DNA from: Oscillospiraceae bacterium
Lineage (GTDB): Bacteria > Bacillota > Clostridia > Oscillospirales > Oscillospiraceae
DNA: 64,000 nucleotides
Direction: 5' to 3'
NCBI GenBank assembly: GCA_015068155.1
Contig: SVLC01000001.1
Location: 21,850 to 85,849, forward strand
Part shown: positions 39,565-48,215 of the stretch, piece after piece
Layout of the letters: the number at the start of each line of letters is the position of its first letter
Position numbering within the stretch: the first letter of the stretch is position 1
The notes under the pieces: generated by a model
What the model was told of the DNA's origin: nothing
Databases searched by the model: none
What the model saw: the letters and a program-made list of their open reading frames with translations, nothing else
Translations under genes and position numbers: made by a program

Positions 39565-42500
39565 TTACTCGAACGTGATATTTTCACCGTAACCATAGCG
39601 TTTGCCGTAGTTGGAACTTGCGCTGACGGTTCCGGTAGCCGTGACATCCATAACGGAAGAGTTTGCGGAGTCTGTGACAATGTAACCAAACAAGCCGCCG
39701 GCATATTTATTGGCAGTTACATTGCCGGAGTTGGTCATCTTATTGGCATAGAAGGTAGTATTTCGGCTGCTGCTATAGGTATTTTCAACATATACATAGC
39801 CAATCAAGCCACCTGCATAGCTTCCGCTGGCGGTAACCTTGCCGGAGTTCTTCAGTTCCGATAAGGTAATTGTATAATTGGAGCTACCATTACTCTTGCT
39901 GTTTAGTGCGCCGAAAATGCCACCTACATAACTGCTGCCGGAAATATTGGCTTGATTTTCCAGTTTGGTCATTTCAAATGTTCCGGTCGCATCGGTATAG
40001 CCCATGATGCCGCCTACATATCTGCCGCCGCCCTTATAGGTGATCGCTACGGTATTGATACAGTTATTCGCCAAATAACCCCGTCCGACATAACCGCCTA
40101 CATAAGCATACTTCACACTGTCTGCGGTAACATAGCCGGTAGCGGTGATGGTGGAACCTGCGTTACTGCAGCCATTGATCCCAATATGGCTCAATTGTCC
40201 GGCAATAGCGCCTACATATGCCTCACCTTCAACAATAGATGCATTGATACAATCTGTGATGGTGGATCTGTTGTCATCGCTATAACCATAGCCGAAAATG
40301 CCGCCTACGTACTGCTTGCCCGTGATGGATCCGGTATTGCTCAGCTGGCTGACACTCAGCAAGGTATTTTTGGATGTACTATAGGTGTTTTCTGCCAACA
40401 CATAGCCTGCAATACCACCCACATAGCTGCCGCTCGCAGTAATTGCGCCGGTGTTCTTCATATTGCTCAATGTCAATGCGTGCACGGTAGATGTATCACT
40501 GCCGCCATCGCTTGCGCCAAAAATACCACCTACATAATCGCTGCCGGAGATGTCAGCCGTGTTTTCCAGGTTCTTCATTTCATAGGTAGCAGAAGCATAT
40601 GTATAGCCCATGATACCGCCTACATATCTGCCGCCGTCCTTGTAGGAAATCGCTACGGTATTGGTGCAATCGTTGATCCGATAGCCATAGCCAACATATC
40701 CGCCCACATACGCGTACTTTTCGCCATCCACGGCCACATAACCCGTAGCCGTGATTGCGGAACCTGCATTGGAACAGCTGTTAACAACAATATTCTTCAG
40801 CTGGCCTGCAATTGCACCTACATAAGTTTCGGCAGTAATCACAGATGTATTGATGCAGTCTGTGATGGTAGATCCGGTATCATCGCTATAACCGTAGCCG
40901 AAAATGCCGCCTACGTACTGCTTGCCCGTGATGGATCCGGTATTGCTCAGCTGGCTGACACTCAGTAAGGTATTTTTGGATGTACTATAGGTGTTTTCTG
41001 CCAACACATAGCCTGCAATACCACCCACATAGCTGCCGCTCGCAGTAATTGCGCCGGTGTTCTTCATATTGCTCAATGTCAATGCGTGCACGGTAGATGT
41101 ATCACTGCCGCCATCGCTTGCGCCAAAAATACCACCTACATAATCGCTGCCGGAGATGTCAGCCGTGTTTTCCAGGTTCTTCATTTCATAGGTAGCAGAA
41201 GCATATGTATAGCCCATGATACCGCCTACATATCTGCCGCCGTCCTTGTAGGAAATCGCTACGGTATTGGTGCAATCGTTGATCCGATAGCCATAGCCAA
41301 CATATCCGCCCACATACGCGTACTTTTCGCCATCCACGGCCACATAACCCGTAGCCGTGATTGCGGAACCTGCATTGGAACAGCTGTTAACAACAATATT
41401 CTTCAGCTGGCCTGCAATTGCACCTACATAGGCTTCCGCCGTGATCGCAGATACATTGGAGCAATCAACCATAGCGCCTGTATTAACATCACAGTATCCG
41501 CAACCGAAAATACCACCCACATATTGCTTGCCGTTTACTGTGCCATTGTTTACCAGGCTGTTCACTTGCAGTGTGGTATTACGGGAGGAGCTGTATGTGT
41601 TTTCTGCATATACATATCCCACAATGCCGCCCGCATAGTTGCCCTCCGCCTTAATTGCGCCCGTATTTTTCAGCGTCTTTAGCGTTAAAATGTAGTCTGT
41701 ACTCTTATCTGTCTTGTTGTTTACAAAACCAAACACGCCGCCGACATTTTCATTACCGGTCACATTGGCCTCATTTTCCAGGTCGGCGATCTCATAGGTG
41801 CCGCCACGGTTCACCAAACCGGCGATGCCGCCTACATTGGTGCAGGTTTCCGCCGTCACGGTGCCGCCGGTAACCACATCGCTGGCATTGCCCTTCAGGG
41901 TGCCACAAAGAATGCCCACATTCTCGTTTCTGCCGGTAACCGTCACACTGGCATTTTCAAACACCAGATCGGTGACCGTGCCCCCCAAAGTGGCAAAGAA
42001 GCCTATGTTACCGGTATCTGCGTGGATGGTCAGGTTTTGGATGGCGCAGCCGTTGCCTACCAGGGTACCGGTAAAGCCTTCGATGGGCGTCCAGGCAATG
42101 CCTGCCAGGTCAATATCATTGGTCAGCAGGAACTTTTCTTCGGAATTGGCCAGCTGATACAGATCGTCCGGATTGCGCAGAGGAATGTACACTTCGGTAT
42201 AGTTCTGTACGAATGCTTCAGACTTGGGAGATGTCAAATAATCTTCTCCGTCACCCAAGACCCGAATAGCGATGTTCGCGCTGCCGCTTTGATCATAGAA
42301 CCGCATCACATTCAGAGATGTTGCATCGGCATCAAAAGTGTCATACAGCACACCATTGACATATACTTCATAGCCCACAGCACCGTCAATGCTGTTCCAG
42401 CTCAATAATCCATCTGTCACAGTGATGTTCACCGCATTGGACAGCACCGTATAGTACCACTCTCCGGACTTTGCCGAACTGACCGTATTGTTTCCGTCGG

Positions 42501-44565
42501 TTCCGTGGGCCGTTACGGCTACCGTGTGTTCGCCGACACGGTTGACTTCCATAAGATCAAAGGTAGTTCCCTCGACCGTAGTGAACAGCTTGCCGTCAAT
42601 ATAAATATCATATTTCGTTGTTTCTTCGGACTCTTCAATGGTGATCACGCTTCCGGTACGCTCCAGAATCGCCACCTGCTCCAGTTTCGTAACCGTAATA
42701 CTCTTGGAATATTCCGAATCATTGACGCAGGGATCCTTACTGATCGCCTTTGCCCGAATGGTGTATTCCCCTGCCATGTACTCATCGCCGAGCTTCAAAG
42801 AAGCCATGCCGTTGGAAAGGTTTTTCCCCTCCAAAGTCAACATGTCTCCATTGATCTCCACCTGGAGTTGCCCCACATATTCTGCACCGAATTGGGCAAA
42901 TACCTCGCCATCCTTCACAGCGAGTACAGGCTGCTGCAGATCGATGGGCATGACCTCCACCGTTGCGGTTGCGGTTTTTCCCTTATAGGAGACCGTAATA
43001 TCGTGCTTGCCCAGCTTGGTGGAATCAAAGCCATCAATGGTGACCTCACTGAGGTCGACCGTTTTCCAGCCGCCTATGAGGAAATTACCTTCAACCGTAA
43101 AGCTCATGGCTTCTTCCGTATCCCGGTAAGAAACTTCCACGCCGCCTTCCGGCAGGATCACCCGCAGCTCCTGCATGGGATTAATATAGACAACCGCACC
43201 GGCAGCCGCTGCCAGCAGAAGTACGATGACCATTGCAACCTTTAAGAAACGCTTTCTAGCCGCCGCCTTCTTAGCCTTTCGAATCCGCTTGGCTTCTTCA
43301 GACTTTTCATATGCTTTTCTGCGTTCCTCTTCGGCAATTCGCTTTTGTTCGGCTTCCCGGCGGGCAGCTTCTTCCCGCATCTGCTTAAGCCGGATGGAAT
43401 CCGCATGGGAGATGCCGCAATTGGGATTGTGGCAAGCATCGTGAGTATTCTTCGCGCCGCACTCCGTGCATATCCACAGACTCTTTTGGTAAGCCTTGTC
43501 GGAAGAGATATAGCTAATAGATTCATTGACCTTGCCTTGCTTCAGAATCAGAACTTCCGCGGCGAAATCAGGCTCACAGTCCAATGCGTCACAAACCCTC
43601 CCCACATTTTCCTTGGTAGCATACTTCTCTGCCAGCAGATTCATGTTGCCGGCTTTTTTCGCCTGGGGCGCAGCTCCCATTTTCCGCTTGACAATGTCGT
43701 AAACACGCTCGGTCAGATTGAAATCGTCGCCATCCAGAGCCTGCATCTGGCTCAGGCCTACGGGCAGCGCCTCTTCGGGCTTGCACTTGATGCACACGGG
43801 TACCAGACTCTTGCTCATATCCTGTTCAGCCAGCAGCAGGAAACGCTTCCATTCGTTTTTGACCCAAACCGCCTCGAAGTATTCCCGGCAGCTGCCCAGC
43901 AGCACCATCACCTTGGAGGATGTTAAAGCCGCAAAGATATAGGGCTCGTACATGTGACCGGCCTTGTCCATCAGGGTTTCTTCCGCGAAGAAGACTTTAA
44001 GGCCCTTGTCGGTGAGGAAATAGTAAAGACGGCGGGCATAGTCGCTGTCCACGGTGGCTCTGCCGTTATCACCGGTCTTCTTGTAGCTGATGAACACATC
44101 GTAGGGTGCTTCCTGATCCACGATCTTCAGGAAGCGGGCAGAGATCCGGTCGATCTCCCGGGCCAAACCCTCGTAGGTAGCCTTCGCCTGGGGAGCCGCG
44201 TGACGGATGGCTGCCAGATAATTCTTGTCCTCCAGAATGGAGGTACGGTTGATACGGTTGCAGGTAGGCATTTTTTTGCCCCGCAGAGGGTCTACCACAA
44301 ATGCCACGCCATAGCGGCACATGGCAGCGCTCCAATGGGCTTCTGCCTGGGTGTTATCCTGGGCTACGATCTGCTCGTAGAACTTCAGGGCTTCGTCAAA
44401 GTCCTTCCGGTCCCAGGCATCGTCCGCCTTGCTGAACAGGTCCTTGAACCTGGCCCGGTCCGGGCCCAGGTCGATGGGGTTTCCGCAGTATTCGCAGAAC
44501 CAACTGCCCGACAGCGATTCCACCTCATTGTGACCGCCGCAGGTTTTACAAATTATCTTTTCCAT
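39565..44565 (-). CDS. Zinc ribbon-TPR-TIR-TM protein with long GLUG-like tandem-repeat ectodomain
   Basis: Start MEKIICKTCGG with RBS; TIR 'APYDVFISYKKTGDNGRATVDSDYARRLYYFLTDKGLKVFFAEETL'; TM 'VAMVIVLLLAAAAGAVVYI'; many 'YVGGIFGYGYS' repeats. Confidence 0.88.
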   Translation of the reverse strand: MEKIICKTCGGHNEVESLSGSWFCEYCGNPIDLGPDRARFKDLFSKADDAWDRKDFDEALKFYEQIVAQDNTQAEAHWSAAMCRYGVAFVVDPLRGKKMPTCNRINRTSILEDKNYLAAIRHAAPQAKATYEGLAREIDRISARFLKIVDQEAPYDVFISYKKTGDNGRATVDSDYARRLYYFLTDKGLKVFFAEETLMDKAGHMYEPYIFAALTSSKVMVLLGSCREYFEAVWVKNEWKRFLLLAEQDMSKSLVPVCIKCKPEEALPVGLSQMQALDGDDFNLTERVYDIVKRKMGAAPQAKKAGNMNLLAEKYATKENVGRVCDALDCEPDFAAEVLILKQGKVNESISYISSDKAYQKSLWICTECGAKNTHDACHNPNCGISHADSIRLKQMREEAARREAEQKRIAEEERRKAYEKSEEAKRIRKAKKAAARKRFLKVAMVIVLLLAAAAGAVVYINPMQELRVILPEGGVEVSYRDTEEAMSFTVEGNFLIGGWKTVDLSEVTIDGFDSTKLGKHDITVSYKGKTATATVEVMPIDLQQPVLAVKDGEVFAQFGAEYVGQLQVEINGDMLTLEGKNLSNGMASLKLGDEYMAGEYTIRAKAISKDPCVNDSEYSKSITVTKLEQVAILERTGSVITIEESEETTKYDIYIDGKLFTTVEGTTFDLMEVNRVGEHTVAVTAHGTDGNNTVSSAKSGEWYYTVLSNAVNITVTDGLLSWNSIDGAVGYEVYVNGVLYDTFDADATSLNVMRFYDQSGSANIAIRVLGDGEDYLTSPKSEAFVQNYTEVYIPLRNPDDLYQLANSEEKFLLTNDIDLAGIAWTPIEGFTGTLVGNGCAIQNLTIHADTGNIGFFATLGGTVTDLVFENASVTVTGRNENVGILCGTLKGNASDVVTGGTVTAETCTNVGGIAGLVNRGGTYEIADLENEANVTGNENVGGVFGFVNNKTDKSTDYILTLKTLKNTGAIKAEGNYAGGIVGYVYAENTYSSSRNTTLQVNSLVNNGTVNGKQYVGGIFGCGYCDVNTGAMVDCSNVSAITAEAYVGAIAGQLKNIVVNSCSNAGSAITATGYVAVDGEKYAYVGGYVGYGYRINDCTNTVAISYKDGGRYVGGIMGYTYASATYEMKNLENTADISGSDYVGGIFGASDGGSDTSTVHALTLSNMKNTGAITASGSYVGGIAGYVLAENTYSTSKNTLLSVSQLSNTGSITGKQYVGGIFGYGYSDDTGSTITDCINTSVITAETYVGAIAGQLKNIVVNSCSNAGSAITATGYVAVDGEKYAYVGGYVGYGYRINDCTNTVAISYKDGGRYVGGIMGYTYASATYEMKNLENTADISGSDYVGGIFGASDGGSDTSTVHALTLSNMKNTGAITASGSYVGGIAGYVLAENTYSTSKNTLLSVSQLSNTGSITGKQYVGGIFGYGYSDDNRSTITDCINASIVEGEAYVGAIAGQLSHIGINGCSNAGSTITATGYVTADSVKYAYVGGYVGRGYLANNCINTVAITYKGGGRYVGGIMGYTDATGTFEMTKLENQANISGSSYVGGIFGALNSKSNGSSNYTITLSELKNSGKVTASGSYAGGLIGYVYVENTYSSSRNTTFYANKMTNSGNVTANKYAGGLFGYIVTDSANSSVMDVTATGTVSASSNYGKRYGYGENITFE
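40285..41430 (-). repeat. Near-identical tandem duplication (606-bp period) inside the TIR-GLUG gene
   Basis: For example, AACCTGCATTGGAACAGCTGTTAACAACAATATTCTTCAG ends at 40800 and at 41406; flanking sequence is nearly identical over several hundred bp. Confidence 0.85.
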
Positions 44566-44602
44566 TTTTCCCTCTCTATGTACTATTTCTGTAGTGATAC
44601 AA

Positions 44603-46414
44603 TCAGTAGTCCTTAGGGCTACCGCAGTTGGTGCATTTCTTGGTAAACAGGCCCTTGAAGGAACCGCCACAGTATTGGCAGAGGCCTCTGCCTCGCCACT
44701 GATTCTGCTGGCTAATCCATGCTGCCTCTGTGGCAGCCCGTGCTTGGGCTTCCTGGAGTTCTCTGCGAAGCAGCTGTGCCAAACCCTTGCTGTTTTGTAG
44801 GAGTGTATCGGCGTTACCATACCCGGGAATAGACTCAAATCCCGCAGCCGCCTCAGCCGCCAATCGGATTCGCTCCTGCCACGATCGATTTTGCTCATTG
44901 GCTTGGCACAACTTCGCGTAAGCCGCCGTATATGTGCCGCGTTTTTTACTCTGAGATGCCTTTTCTTCACACTGTGCTGCCATTATGCGACTGTCTCTAA
45001 ATTCACCTAACGAATGAAATTCATTTGCCGCATTCTGCAACGCCCGTTCATCATTGCTGTTTTCCAATATTTCGCGGGCGTTGATATATCTTGTCTGTCT
45101 ATCCCGTTCTTCCTGCTCAGCCTCTCTTTGGGTGCGCACCTCCGCGTCCTTTTTCTGGCACATGATCTTTTTCAGCCCCACTGTCAAACACTTGGCAAGA
45201 TATTTACGGTGTGCTCGCTCCCGAATCTCAGAAAGTGTTTTGCTAACAGCGGGATCACTGAAACGAATAGCACGTTCAAAATTCTTATCGTCATGCAGTT
45301 TGATGAAATATTCGTCAATCTGTTGTGCATTGTTTAAATGCAGCGCAGACAACACCTTGCCCAAATACGCTCCACCATCCTGAGGATTTTGGTCCAAGGC
45401 TTTTTCAAAAAACTCATTTGCCTTGGCAAAATCGTTGTCCTCCAGGGCAAACTGACCACGCATAACCATAGCGCTGGCGTTGGAAGGCGGTGTCTGCACC
45501 ACAATGGTGGTCTCCTTCTGTCGGGGTAAAATCTTTTCAATGCCCCGCAGCAGATCCTGCATAGCTCCCACCTTACCCAGATCCTGAGCCTGGAGCTTGG
45601 CAAATTCCTTTGGCATATCGTAAGCATCCAGGCCCTTGAAGCAGGGGATCAGGTGCTTAGTCTTATCCCTGGCCATCAGTTTCAGATATCGGCTCCACTC
45701 ATTCTTCACCCAAACCGCATTGTAATACTCAAAATCCGTACCCACTGCCAGCATGATTTTGGCAGAATTCAGCGCGGCAAAAATATAGGGCTCATATTCC
45801 TGCCCCAACTTGTCTTCCAGAGTAATGCGTGCAAAGAAAACGCGGTAACCCTTTGCCGTCAAGGCATCATAAATATCCTGAGCCAACACGGAATCCAGGG
45901 TACGGTCACCGTTTTCCGCCGTCTCCTTGTAGCAAATAAAGATATCATAGGGTACTTCGTTATTGGACACTGCTACAACGCTGCGGCGGATATCTTCAAT
46001 GCGTTTAGCCTCTGTCCGGTACACTTTTCGGGAAACCACATCCGCATTGTCATACACCTGTTCATAGTCCGGATCATCGAAAACGCTATCGAAGCTCGAT
46101 CGATGGCAGGTAGGAATCTTTTCACCGGTAGCTGGGTCATCCACATACTCAATGCCGTACTTACACAGCACCAAACCCCAATAGGCTTCTGCCTCCTGAG
46201 GGTATTCTGCCACGATAGACTCAAAAACCCCTGCGGCTTTATCAAATTCACAGGCAGTGCGCAACCGCTCCGCACGGGCAAATAAGGTTAGCTTCTTTTC
46301 GTTATCCATGGAGGGGATGGTCTGCTCCCTGCCGCAAAAATCGCATGTTGTTACTGTTACGCCAGGGGTTAGCGGCAACGGAGCTCCGCACATTTTGCAA
46401 CTAAGCACTGCCAT
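44603..46414 (-). CDS. Zinc ribbon-TIR-TPR protein
   Basis: 'MAVLSCKMCGAPLPLTPGVTVTTCDFCG', TIR 'VPYDIFICYKETAENGDRTLDSVLAQDIYDALTAKGYRVFFARITL', C-terminal zinc ribbon. Confidence 0.88.
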   Translation of the reverse strand: MAVLSCKMCGAPLPLTPGVTVTTCDFCGREQTIPSMDNEKKLTLFARAERLRTACEFDKAAGVFESIVAEYPQEAEAYWGLVLCKYGIEYVDDPATGEKIPTCHRSSFDSVFDDPDYEQVYDNADVVSRKVYRTEAKRIEDIRRSVVAVSNNEVPYDIFICYKETAENGDRTLDSVLAQDIYDALTAKGYRVFFARITLEDKLGQEYEPYIFAALNSAKIMLAVGTDFEYYNAVWVKNEWSRYLKLMARDKTKHLIPCFKGLDAYDMPKEFAKLQAQDLGKVGAMQDLLRGIEKILPRQKETTIVVQTPPSNASAMVMRGQFALEDNDFAKANEFFEKALDQNPQDGGAYLGKVLSALHLNNAQQIDEYFIKLHDDKNFERAIRFSDPAVSKTLSEIRERAHRKYLAKCLTVGLKKIMCQKKDAEVRTQREAEQEERDRQTRYINAREILENSNDERALQNAANEFHSLGEFRDSRIMAAQCEEKASQSKKRGTYTAAYAKLCQANEQNRSWQERIRLAAEAAAGFESIPGYGNADTLLQNSKGLAQLLRRELQEAQARAATEAAWISQQNQWRGRGLCQYCGGSFKGLFTKKCTNCGSPKDY

Positions 46415-46593: not shown

Positions 46594-47133
46594 TTATGTG
46601 TTCCACGCAAAGGGCTTATAGGCAGCATGGTCTTCCGATACCAATGCACGGGCAATCAGGGTGCGGTCAGCCGAGTTGATCTTGCCGTTTCCGTTGACAT
46701 CTGCGGCAAAGCGCTGGGGATCCGACAACGTCTGATCGGATACCAGATAGCCGGCCAACAGAGTATTATCGGCTTCTTCCAAGATGCCATTACCGTCCAC
46801 ATCACCAATTACCACCAACAGCACTTCTTCTACCCCATCAGGCGCGATGAAGGAATAGCTGCGGTCACCATTGTCAGTACAAGGAATTTCCACATAGCTT
46901 TGCGCCATAGCATCCCAGTAGCCCAACTTGCAGGCCTGGGTGTTTTTCACCGTGACCACATTGCCATGAACGGTGTAAGGCACATTCCGGGAGATCACTT
47001 GCAGCGGCTTCTCCGCGCCACAGATGCACGAGCCGGTGCTGAAATCGTGGGTTTCTCCTTCGATTTCTGCTTCCCCGCATTCCAAAATAAGCCATGTCGT
47101 ATTTTCCGTCACATATTTCGCATTATGTGGCAA
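46594..47133 (-). CDS. Dockerin type I domain-containing C-terminal fragment (no signal peptide)
   Basis: 'GDVDGNGILEEADNTLLAGYLVS...ADVNGNGKINSADRTLIARALVS' calcium-binding dockerin duplicate; ORF opens inside a palindromic site. Confidence 0.75.
   Translation of the reverse strand: MPHNAKYVTENTTWLILECGEAEIEGETHDFSTGSCICGAEKPLQVISRNVPYTVHGNVVTVKNTQACKLGYWDAMAQSYVEIPCTDNGDRSYSFIAPDGVEEVLLVVIGDVDGNGILEEADNTLLAGYLVSDQTLSDPQRFAADVNGNGKINSADRTLIARALVSEDHAAYKPFAWNT
47109..47130 (+). repeat. Palindromic recombination-site candidate, copy 1
   Basis: TCACATATTTCGCATTATGTGG. Confidence 0.75.
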
Positions 47134-47347
47134 GAATGTTCACAATTTAATTAAAATTTTACTCCTTTGCCATATGAAAGTCAAGTGTTCCAGTATTTAT
47201 TGTGAAATTATTGTGAATTTTGGGGTTCGCAATTAAAAATAAATGCGAAAAATACACCCTTATAGACCTTTAAAATTGGAAGGCATGATAAGGGTGTGTT
47301 TGTCATGCTTGCTGCGTGTATATGTAAATTTCATTGTATCGCTTTTA

Positions 47348-47369
47348 TCACATAATGCGAATTATGTGA
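47348..47369 (-). repeat. Palindromic recombination-site candidate, copy 2 (inverted)
   Basis: + strand TCACATAATGCGAATTATGTGA; reverse complement matches copy 1 except for two bases. Confidence 0.75.
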
Positions 47370-47375
47370 CGATTG

Positions 47376-48215
47376 TTAAATTACCAGTCCCAGGCGTTCG
47401 TTCTTGTGGCGGTGCTCGGTGCCGGTGGTCATGATATAGATACGGGTAGTATTGATACTGCTGTGGCCCAGAATGTCCGCCAGCTTGGCGATGTCCTTTT
47501 CGATGCCGTAAAATGTGCGGGCAAACAGTTTTCTTAGATTATGAGGAAACACCTTCGTTTCCTTCACGCCTGCCGTCCGGCAAAGCGCCTTCATCTGCCG
47601 CAAAATGCTGCTGCGGTCCAGCGGTTTTCCGTTCCGTCCAACAAAGATCTCCCCTACCCGGATGTTTTTCTGCTTAGCGTAATTTAATAATAACTTTTTT
47701 AGCTTGCCCGGAACAAAAATGGTCCGGGTCTTATTTTTGCAGCTGACAACGATCTGCCCCTGGCGCACCGATTCAACCGTGAAGTATTTCAGCTCCGACA
47801 CCCGGATGCCGGTACCGCAAATGGTCTGCAGTACCAGATTTAGTTGCGGATTTTTCTGCGCTACGGCCAAAAGACGCAGGTATTCAGCTTTCGTCAATTC
47901 TCGTTCCTCTGCACAATAGGTCTGCCGCTGCAGACGGATATTTTTCACCCGGCAATCCTGCCATCCTAAAAAAGCAAAAAAGCTGTTGAGGGAGGCCAGC
48001 ATGGAATTGATCGAGCGCACCGCATAGCCTTGTTCCGACAATCCCCTTTTCCATGCCACCACCAATTCCTTGGTTACTTCCCGGCTATCCGCAAAACGAC
48101 AGAACAGCCCCACATCACGAAGGTATTTTTCTACCGTCGCTTCGCTTTTCTCCTCCTGCCGCAGATAAATTCCAAATGCGTTAATCTGCTTCTCCGCCAA
48201 AAACCGTTGTTCCAT
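47376..48215 (-). CDS. XerC/D-like tyrosine recombinase
   Basis: SAM-like N-domain; catalytic pattern 'GTGIRVSELKYFTVE', 'HNLRKLFARTFY', 'LADILGHSSINTTRIY'. Confidence 0.93.
   Translation of the reverse strand: MEQRFLAEKQINAFGIYLRQEEKSEATVEKYLRDVGLFCRFADSREVTKELVVAWKRGLSEQGYAVRSINSMLASLNSFFAFLGWQDCRVKNIRLQRQTYCAEERELTKAEYLRLLAVAQKNPQLNLVLQTICGTGIRVSELKYFTVESVRQGQIVVSCKNKTRTIFVPGKLKKLLLNYAKQKNIRVGEIFVGRNGKPLDRSSILRQMKALCRTAGVKETKVFPHNLRKLFARTFYGIEKDIAKLADILGHSSINTTRIYIMTTGTEHRHKNERLGLVI

What the first reader, a model, noticed from the sequence alone, without database searches (positions are those of the whole stretch)
47109..47369. Possible invertible segment: inverted palindromic sites between the tyrosine recombinase and a dockerin ORF
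TCACATATTTCGCATTATGTGG (47109-47130) and TCACATAATGCGAATTATGTGA (47348-47369) are inverted relative to each other (20/22 match after reverse complement). Each is made of 9-bp arms around a 4-bp asymmetric core, as expected for tyrosine-recombinase sites. They enclose about 217 bp of AT-rich DNA next to the recombinase 3' end.
Basis: partly seen in the sequence, partly recalled or inferred. Interest (0 to 1): 0.75.

Follow-up and report, generated by a model that had tools for sequence, protein, structure and literature searches.

The report
Flip-flop promoter beside its recombinase
A 217-base stretch holding a promoter lies between two mirror-image recombination sites next to a gene for a DNA-flipping enzyme; the same switch recurs in many gut Clostridia, mostly in front of surface or secreted protein genes, but here the gene it would turn on has lost its front end.

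Summary
Two 22-bp sites (9-bp arms, 4-bp core) enclose 217 bp of AT-rich DNA, beginning 6 bp after a complete tyrosine recombinase. This is one copy of a widespread cassette: recombinase, then IR-segment-IR, then target gene. A close recombinase relative is in 78 of 297 genomes of the order. A perfect IR of at least 16 bp lies 3' of the recombinase in 53 of 59 loci, against 0 of 59 on the 5' side. The 4-bp core is identical in both sites in 77 of 77 loci, with 40 different cores. Homologous segments occur in both orientations between conserved flanks, and assemblies break exactly at the inner IR boundary. Each segment carries an outward sigma-70-type promoter and a hairpin, so it works as an invertible promoter. 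In the window the promoter faces the dockerin ORF (ON). Two local features are unusual: the dockerin-side site has a substitution at a position invariant in the other 149 sites, and the dockerin ORF has no ribosome site or signal peptide, so it looks like a C-terminal remnant. The family probably corresponds to inverton group 139 of PMC11892184. Flipping of this copy is untested.

The parts
47376..48215 (-). Tyrosine recombinase (279 aa from ATG), the presumed invertase; putative catalytic residues R138, K162, H225, R228, H251, Y260
   Evidence: Pfam Phage_integrase 5e-20 and Phage_int_SAM_1 6e-12; these residues are invariant in 18 relatives at 51-69% identity
47348..47369 (+). Recombinase-side recombination site (IR_L), consensus ACATAAT-GCGA-ATTATGT
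   Evidence: matches the family consensus
47109..47130 (-). Dockerin-side recombination site (IR_R); outer arm ACATATT instead of ACATAAT
   Evidence: A at this position in 149 of 150 sites tallied, the one T being this site
47131..47347 (.). Invertible segment (217 bp)
   Evidence: position and size as in relatives; inversion of homologous segments
47156..47184 (-). Sigma-70-type promoter TTGACT-17-TAAAAT facing the dockerin ORF (ON orientation)
   Evidence: (10 of 12 matches); family position 35-85 bp inside the IR end
47247..47304 (.). Terminator-like hairpin, 3' of the recombinase and behind the promoter; U tract (AUUUUU) on the minus strand
   Evidence: I2; folding z = -3.8 (minus) and -4.85 (plus)
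46594..47133 (-). Dockerin ORF (179 aa from TTG inside the site; no Shine-Dalgarno, no signal peptide): probable 5'-truncated target gene
   Evidence: Pfam Dockerin_1 3.7e-9; most listed homologous stretches lie in much longer open frames, up to 3540 aa; no SD-start found within 400 bp of IR_R

Best explanation
This is a cis-encoded phase-variation switch. The Xer-like tyrosine recombinase binds two inverted sites (ACATAAT-N4-ATTATGT), exchanges strands within the shared 4-bp core and flips the segment between them. The segment carries a promoter near one end and a terminator-like hairpin. In ON (as assembled) recombinase transcription meets the hairpin, and the promoter behind it fires outward through the distal site into the target. 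In OFF the promoter points back at the recombinase. Shown: conserved architecture, core covariation, segments inverted between conserved flanks in relatives, assembly branching at the inner IR boundary. Inferred: that the adjacent recombinase does the flipping, promoter and terminator activity, and that the window copy still flips. In relatives the targets are mostly surface or secreted proteins; in the window the target (dockerin protein) has probably lost its 5' part, so the switch now drives a remnant.
For: Perfect IR >=16 bp, gap 150-450: 53/59 loci 3' of the recombinase, 0/59 5', 0/59 in shuffles. Core identical in both sites in 77/77 loci with 40 distinct cores. Segment pairs aligning only when one is inverted, e.g. 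L070/L077 (200 vs 26; null maximum 49) and L108/L120 (180 vs 71) with both flanks collinear (536, 384); 112 comparisons in one 39-locus group without an inconsistency. Promoter direction and hairpin position agree in 71/77 (18 ON, 53 OFF), window ON. 15 of 80 contigs end within 300 bp 3' of the recombinase, 0 on the 5' side. Flank contigs stop or start exactly at the inner IR boundary in four assemblies. Read-level flipping was reported for a Clostridia inverton group tied to a tyrosine recombinase group (PMC11892184).
Against: No reads, and no second orientation, are available for the window's own species. Its dockerin-side site carries a substitution at an otherwise invariant position. Its segment has no closely alignable relative (best score 45, below the null maximum of 49). 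The target ORF looks non-functional. The spacer promoter is a consensus match only.
Confidence: 0.88

Rival explanations
1. The cassette is a real inverton family, but this copy is decayed: locked ON by the mutated distal site and left without a functional target.
For: The T at position -3 of the distal site is the only one among 150 sites; dockerin ORF headless and without SD; most other loci have perfect IRs.
Against: The recombinase is intact with conserved residues; a few other loci also have 1-2 mismatches; a single arm change need not abolish recombination.
Confidence: 0.4
2. The palindromes are operators for a regulator or parts of terminators, with no recombination.
For: Each site is an imperfect palindrome and could in principle bind a dimer.
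Against: Core sequence changes in step in both sites, segments are found inverted between conserved flanks, and assembly branches fall at the inner IR boundary.
Confidence: 0.03
3. The recombinase is a phage or integrative-element integrase and the repeats are attachment sites.
For: Some relatives lie in contigs called viral, several of them cut at the recombinase; best phage-record match 44%.
Against: Sites are inverted and mostly 190-345 bp apart rather than direct repeats flanking an element; targets are cellular surface genes; isolates carry the same layout on large replicons.
Confidence: 0.04
4. Inversion fuses an N-terminal segment to the dockerin ORF (coding switch) rather than flipping a promoter.
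For: In the inverted orientation a 36-residue partly hydrophobic stretch would join the dockerin frame.
Against: The site sequence is stop-free in that frame in general; relatives mostly have complete targets with their own SD and start after the IR, median 70 bp; the fusion has no proper start region.
Confidence: 0.05

Closest known systems
Inverton group 139 with invertase group 35 of gut Clostridia (PMC11892184)
   Same: Class Clostridia, adjacent tyrosine-type recombinase; published examples have IRs of 14 and 26 bp and gaps of 227 and 205 bp; flipping seen in reads
   Different: Its IR motif is in a supplement that could not be read, so identity with ACATAAT-N4-ATTATGT is not proven
Clostridioides difficile RecV switches (cwpV, PMC2784873)
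   Same: XerC/XerD-type tyrosine recombinase, 21-bp imperfect IRs 195 bp apart upstream of a surface protein gene
   Different: In cwpV the promoter lies outside the inverted segment and control is by a terminator; recV was picked from a genome-wide set of candidates rather than by adjacency
E. coli fim switch (FimB/FimE)
   Same: Invertible promoter controlling a surface structure, with tyrosine recombinases encoded in the same locus (described in PMC2784873)
   Different: Two recombinases and a regulated terminator downstream of fimE
PsrA-type tyrosine DNA invertases (PMC7096588)
   Same: Tyrosine recombinase that catalyses DNA inversion (abstract); a plasmid protein named PsrA is about 31% identical
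   Different: Described for DNA inversions in S. pneumoniae; from my own knowledge it shuffles restriction-specificity coding sequence rather than flipping a promoter

Membership tests
Tyrosine-recombinase-driven invertible promoter (inverton) | Pair of inverted site repeats flanking a short segment | tested here: met
Tyrosine-recombinase-driven invertible promoter (inverton) | Recombinase with complete catalytic set | tested here: met
   residue roles assigned from general knowledge of the family
Tyrosine-recombinase-driven invertible promoter (inverton) | Promoter within the segment directed at the target in one orientation | tested here: met
   (sequence prediction only)
Tyrosine-recombinase-driven invertible promoter (inverton) | Both orientations exist among family members | tested here: met
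Tyrosine-recombinase-driven invertible promoter (inverton) | Both orientations in this species | not testable with these tools
   no reads or second strain; one representative genome per species
Inverton group 139 / invertase group 35 | Same IR motif | not testable with these tools
   motif is in the paper's supplement; size, taxon and adjacency fit
Cellulosomal dockerin protein (target) | Dockerin repeat | tested here: met
   Dockerin_1 3.7e-9
Cellulosomal dockerin protein (target) | Secretion signal and complete reading frame | tested here: not met

The most novel reading that the evidence does not exclude
A self-contained recombinase-plus-invertible-promoter cassette, spread across the order and beyond, places different surface programmes under ON/OFF control, including dockerin/cohesin-bearing secreted proteins in the window's genus, so that cellulosome-like surface complexes in gut Clostridia would be phase variable.
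Probability: 0.45. Interest if true: 0.6.

Novelty: new member of a known kind. Interest (0 to 1): 0.45.

Why it matters
It gives a defined site motif (ACATAAT-N4-ATTATGT), a matching recombinase family and a fixed gene order with which phase-variable genes can be found in uncultured Clostridia without read data. Targets include dockerin, cohesin, BspA-type repeat and signal-peptidase genes, which suggests that adhesion and complex assembly vary between sister cells. Cultured carriers exist (Hespellia stercorisuis, Holdemania sp., Collinsella tanakaei), so the idea is testable.

Tried and rejected
Shufflon or cassette exchange with other genomic sites: no further good sites in the assembly; the C45 match is an imperfect palindrome inside an unrelated ORF. 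A coding fusion by inversion: rejected as the general mechanism. Linking the TIR/TPR genes to the switch: a close homolog in G033 lies on a different contig from its recombinase. Near-identical viral contigs as a source of both orientations: same orientation or truncated. Literature search for phase-variable dockerins: no paper in the library.

Full report
The repeats are real. TCACATATTTCGCATTATGTGG (47109-47130) and TCACATAATGCGAATTATGTGA (47348-47369) are inverted copies with 20/22 identity and extend to 22/23; shuffled windows never give them. They enclose 217 bp and lie next to the 3' end of a complete tyrosine recombinase. The window's genome is a draft of 1.86 Mb in 79 contigs, 82% complete, and holds no further good copy of the site.

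The recombinase has many close relatives. Among 99 related genomes a set of roughly 50-69% identity appeared at scattered places; in a broader draw from the order, 78 of 297 genomes and 54 of 133 genera had one at E <= 1e-50. A scan of public genomes returned 80 loci, mostly uncultured Clostridia but also Hespellia stercorisuis, Holdemania sp. and Collinsella tanakaei. Putative catalytic residues R138, K162, H225, R228, H251 and Y260 are invariant in 18 relatives.

The layout is conserved. In 59 loci with at least 700 bp on both sides, 53 have a perfect inverted repeat of 16 bp or more 3' of the recombinase, none 5', none in shuffles (listings). The consensus is ACATAAT-N4-ATTATGT. In 77 of 77 loci the four core bases are the same in both sites, although 40 different cores occur. 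This is the pattern expected if strands are exchanged within the core.

Inversion has happened. Segment interiors of some loci align only when one is reverse-complemented (L070/L077: 200 against 26; L108/L120: 180 against 71; null maximum 49), while for L108/L120 both outside flanks remain collinear. One group of 39 loci gives 112 comparisons without a contradiction, split 10 to 29 between orientations. Independently, promoter direction and hairpin position agree in 71 of 77 segments, 18 ON and 53 OFF. Exceptions are L009, which the homology grouping places with the ON set but both other markers call OFF, and L069, whose promoter scores are nearly equal.

Assemblies also show it. Fifteen of 80 contigs end within 300 bp 3' of the recombinase and none within 300 bp 5'. 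Several end exactly with the site. In G386 and G389 the left-flank and right-flank contigs both stop at the same inner boundary; in G389 contig C21 starts exactly at the inner boundary computed from contig C58; G376 and G388 show right-flank contigs that start there too. A branch at that point is what an assembly graph gives when both orientations are present; this is inference, since reads were not seen.

How it works. In the window the minus strand carries TTGACT-17-TAAAAT (47184-47156), facing the dockerin ORF, and behind it a hairpin followed by AUUUUU. The likely sequence of events: the recombinase is transcribed and its transcript meets the hairpin; the promoter beyond it fires outward through the distal site in ON; flipping turns it back toward the recombinase in OFF. 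In 16 of 41 relatives with room between recombinase and site, a terminator-like hairpin would stop the OFF transcript before it enters the recombinase. The window has almost no gap there, so an OFF transcript could run antisense into the recombinase; that is a guess to test.

Targets. In relatives the next gene usually has its own ribosome site, median 70 bp from the IR. Of 42 downstream proteins scanned (the window's own included), Dockerin_1 is the most frequent family (6), followed by List-Bact repeats, BspA repeats, TetR, SPFH, signal peptidase S26, cohesin and collagen. Same-genus L009 drives a secreted M23/lectin/dockerin protein and same-genus L011 a collagen-cohesin protein followed by a cohesin/dockerin protein; L022, from another family of the order, is followed by a dockerin/cohesin protein as second gene.

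The window copy differs in two ways. Its distal site reads ACATATT, with T at a position that is A in the other 149 sites. Its dockerin ORF begins inside that site, with no ribosome site or signal peptide, while most listed homologous stretches lie in much longer open frames, up to 3540 aa. The simplest reading is that the target has lost its 5' part; misassembly at the site cannot be excluded. Whether this copy still flips is open.

Comparison with known systems. Clostridia inverton group 139 in PMC11892184 (33 invertons, 32 from Clostridia) is tied to a tyrosine recombinase group, with read-level flipping and matching sizes; this window is probably a member, but the motif could not be compared. 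C. difficile cwpV differs in keeping its promoter outside the segment (PMC2784873). The finding is therefore a new member of a known kind, with a clear motif and an unusual set of targets.

Noticed in passing
window 39565-46414 (-): Two large adjacent TIR-domain proteins (603 aa with TPR-like repeats; 1801 aa with Big_3 domain and long internal repeats) follow the dockerin ORF; the first has homologs of about 52-78% identity, with 11 matches in G062.
   Followed up: partly
L062, L014, L190 (switch region): Tandem duplicate sites at one or both ends of the segment, which would allow deletions as well as inversions.
   Followed up: no
G389 and G390: Several contigs in one genome carry sites with the same 4-bp core, so exchange between switches is conceivable.
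   Followed up: partly
L291 (Pusillibacter faecalis plasmid pMM59_01): A 50% identical recombinase precedes an IR of a different sequence (GACAAAAACAACATTTCGT) and an S-layer-homology protein gene: site and recombinase seem to co-evolve.
   Followed up: partly
G066: At least seven copies of the recombinase family in one 1.9-Mb genome, several at contig ends.
   Followed up: no
16 of 41 loci: A terminator-like hairpin between recombinase and site, oriented to stop the OFF-state transcript before it enters the recombinase gene.
   Followed up: partly
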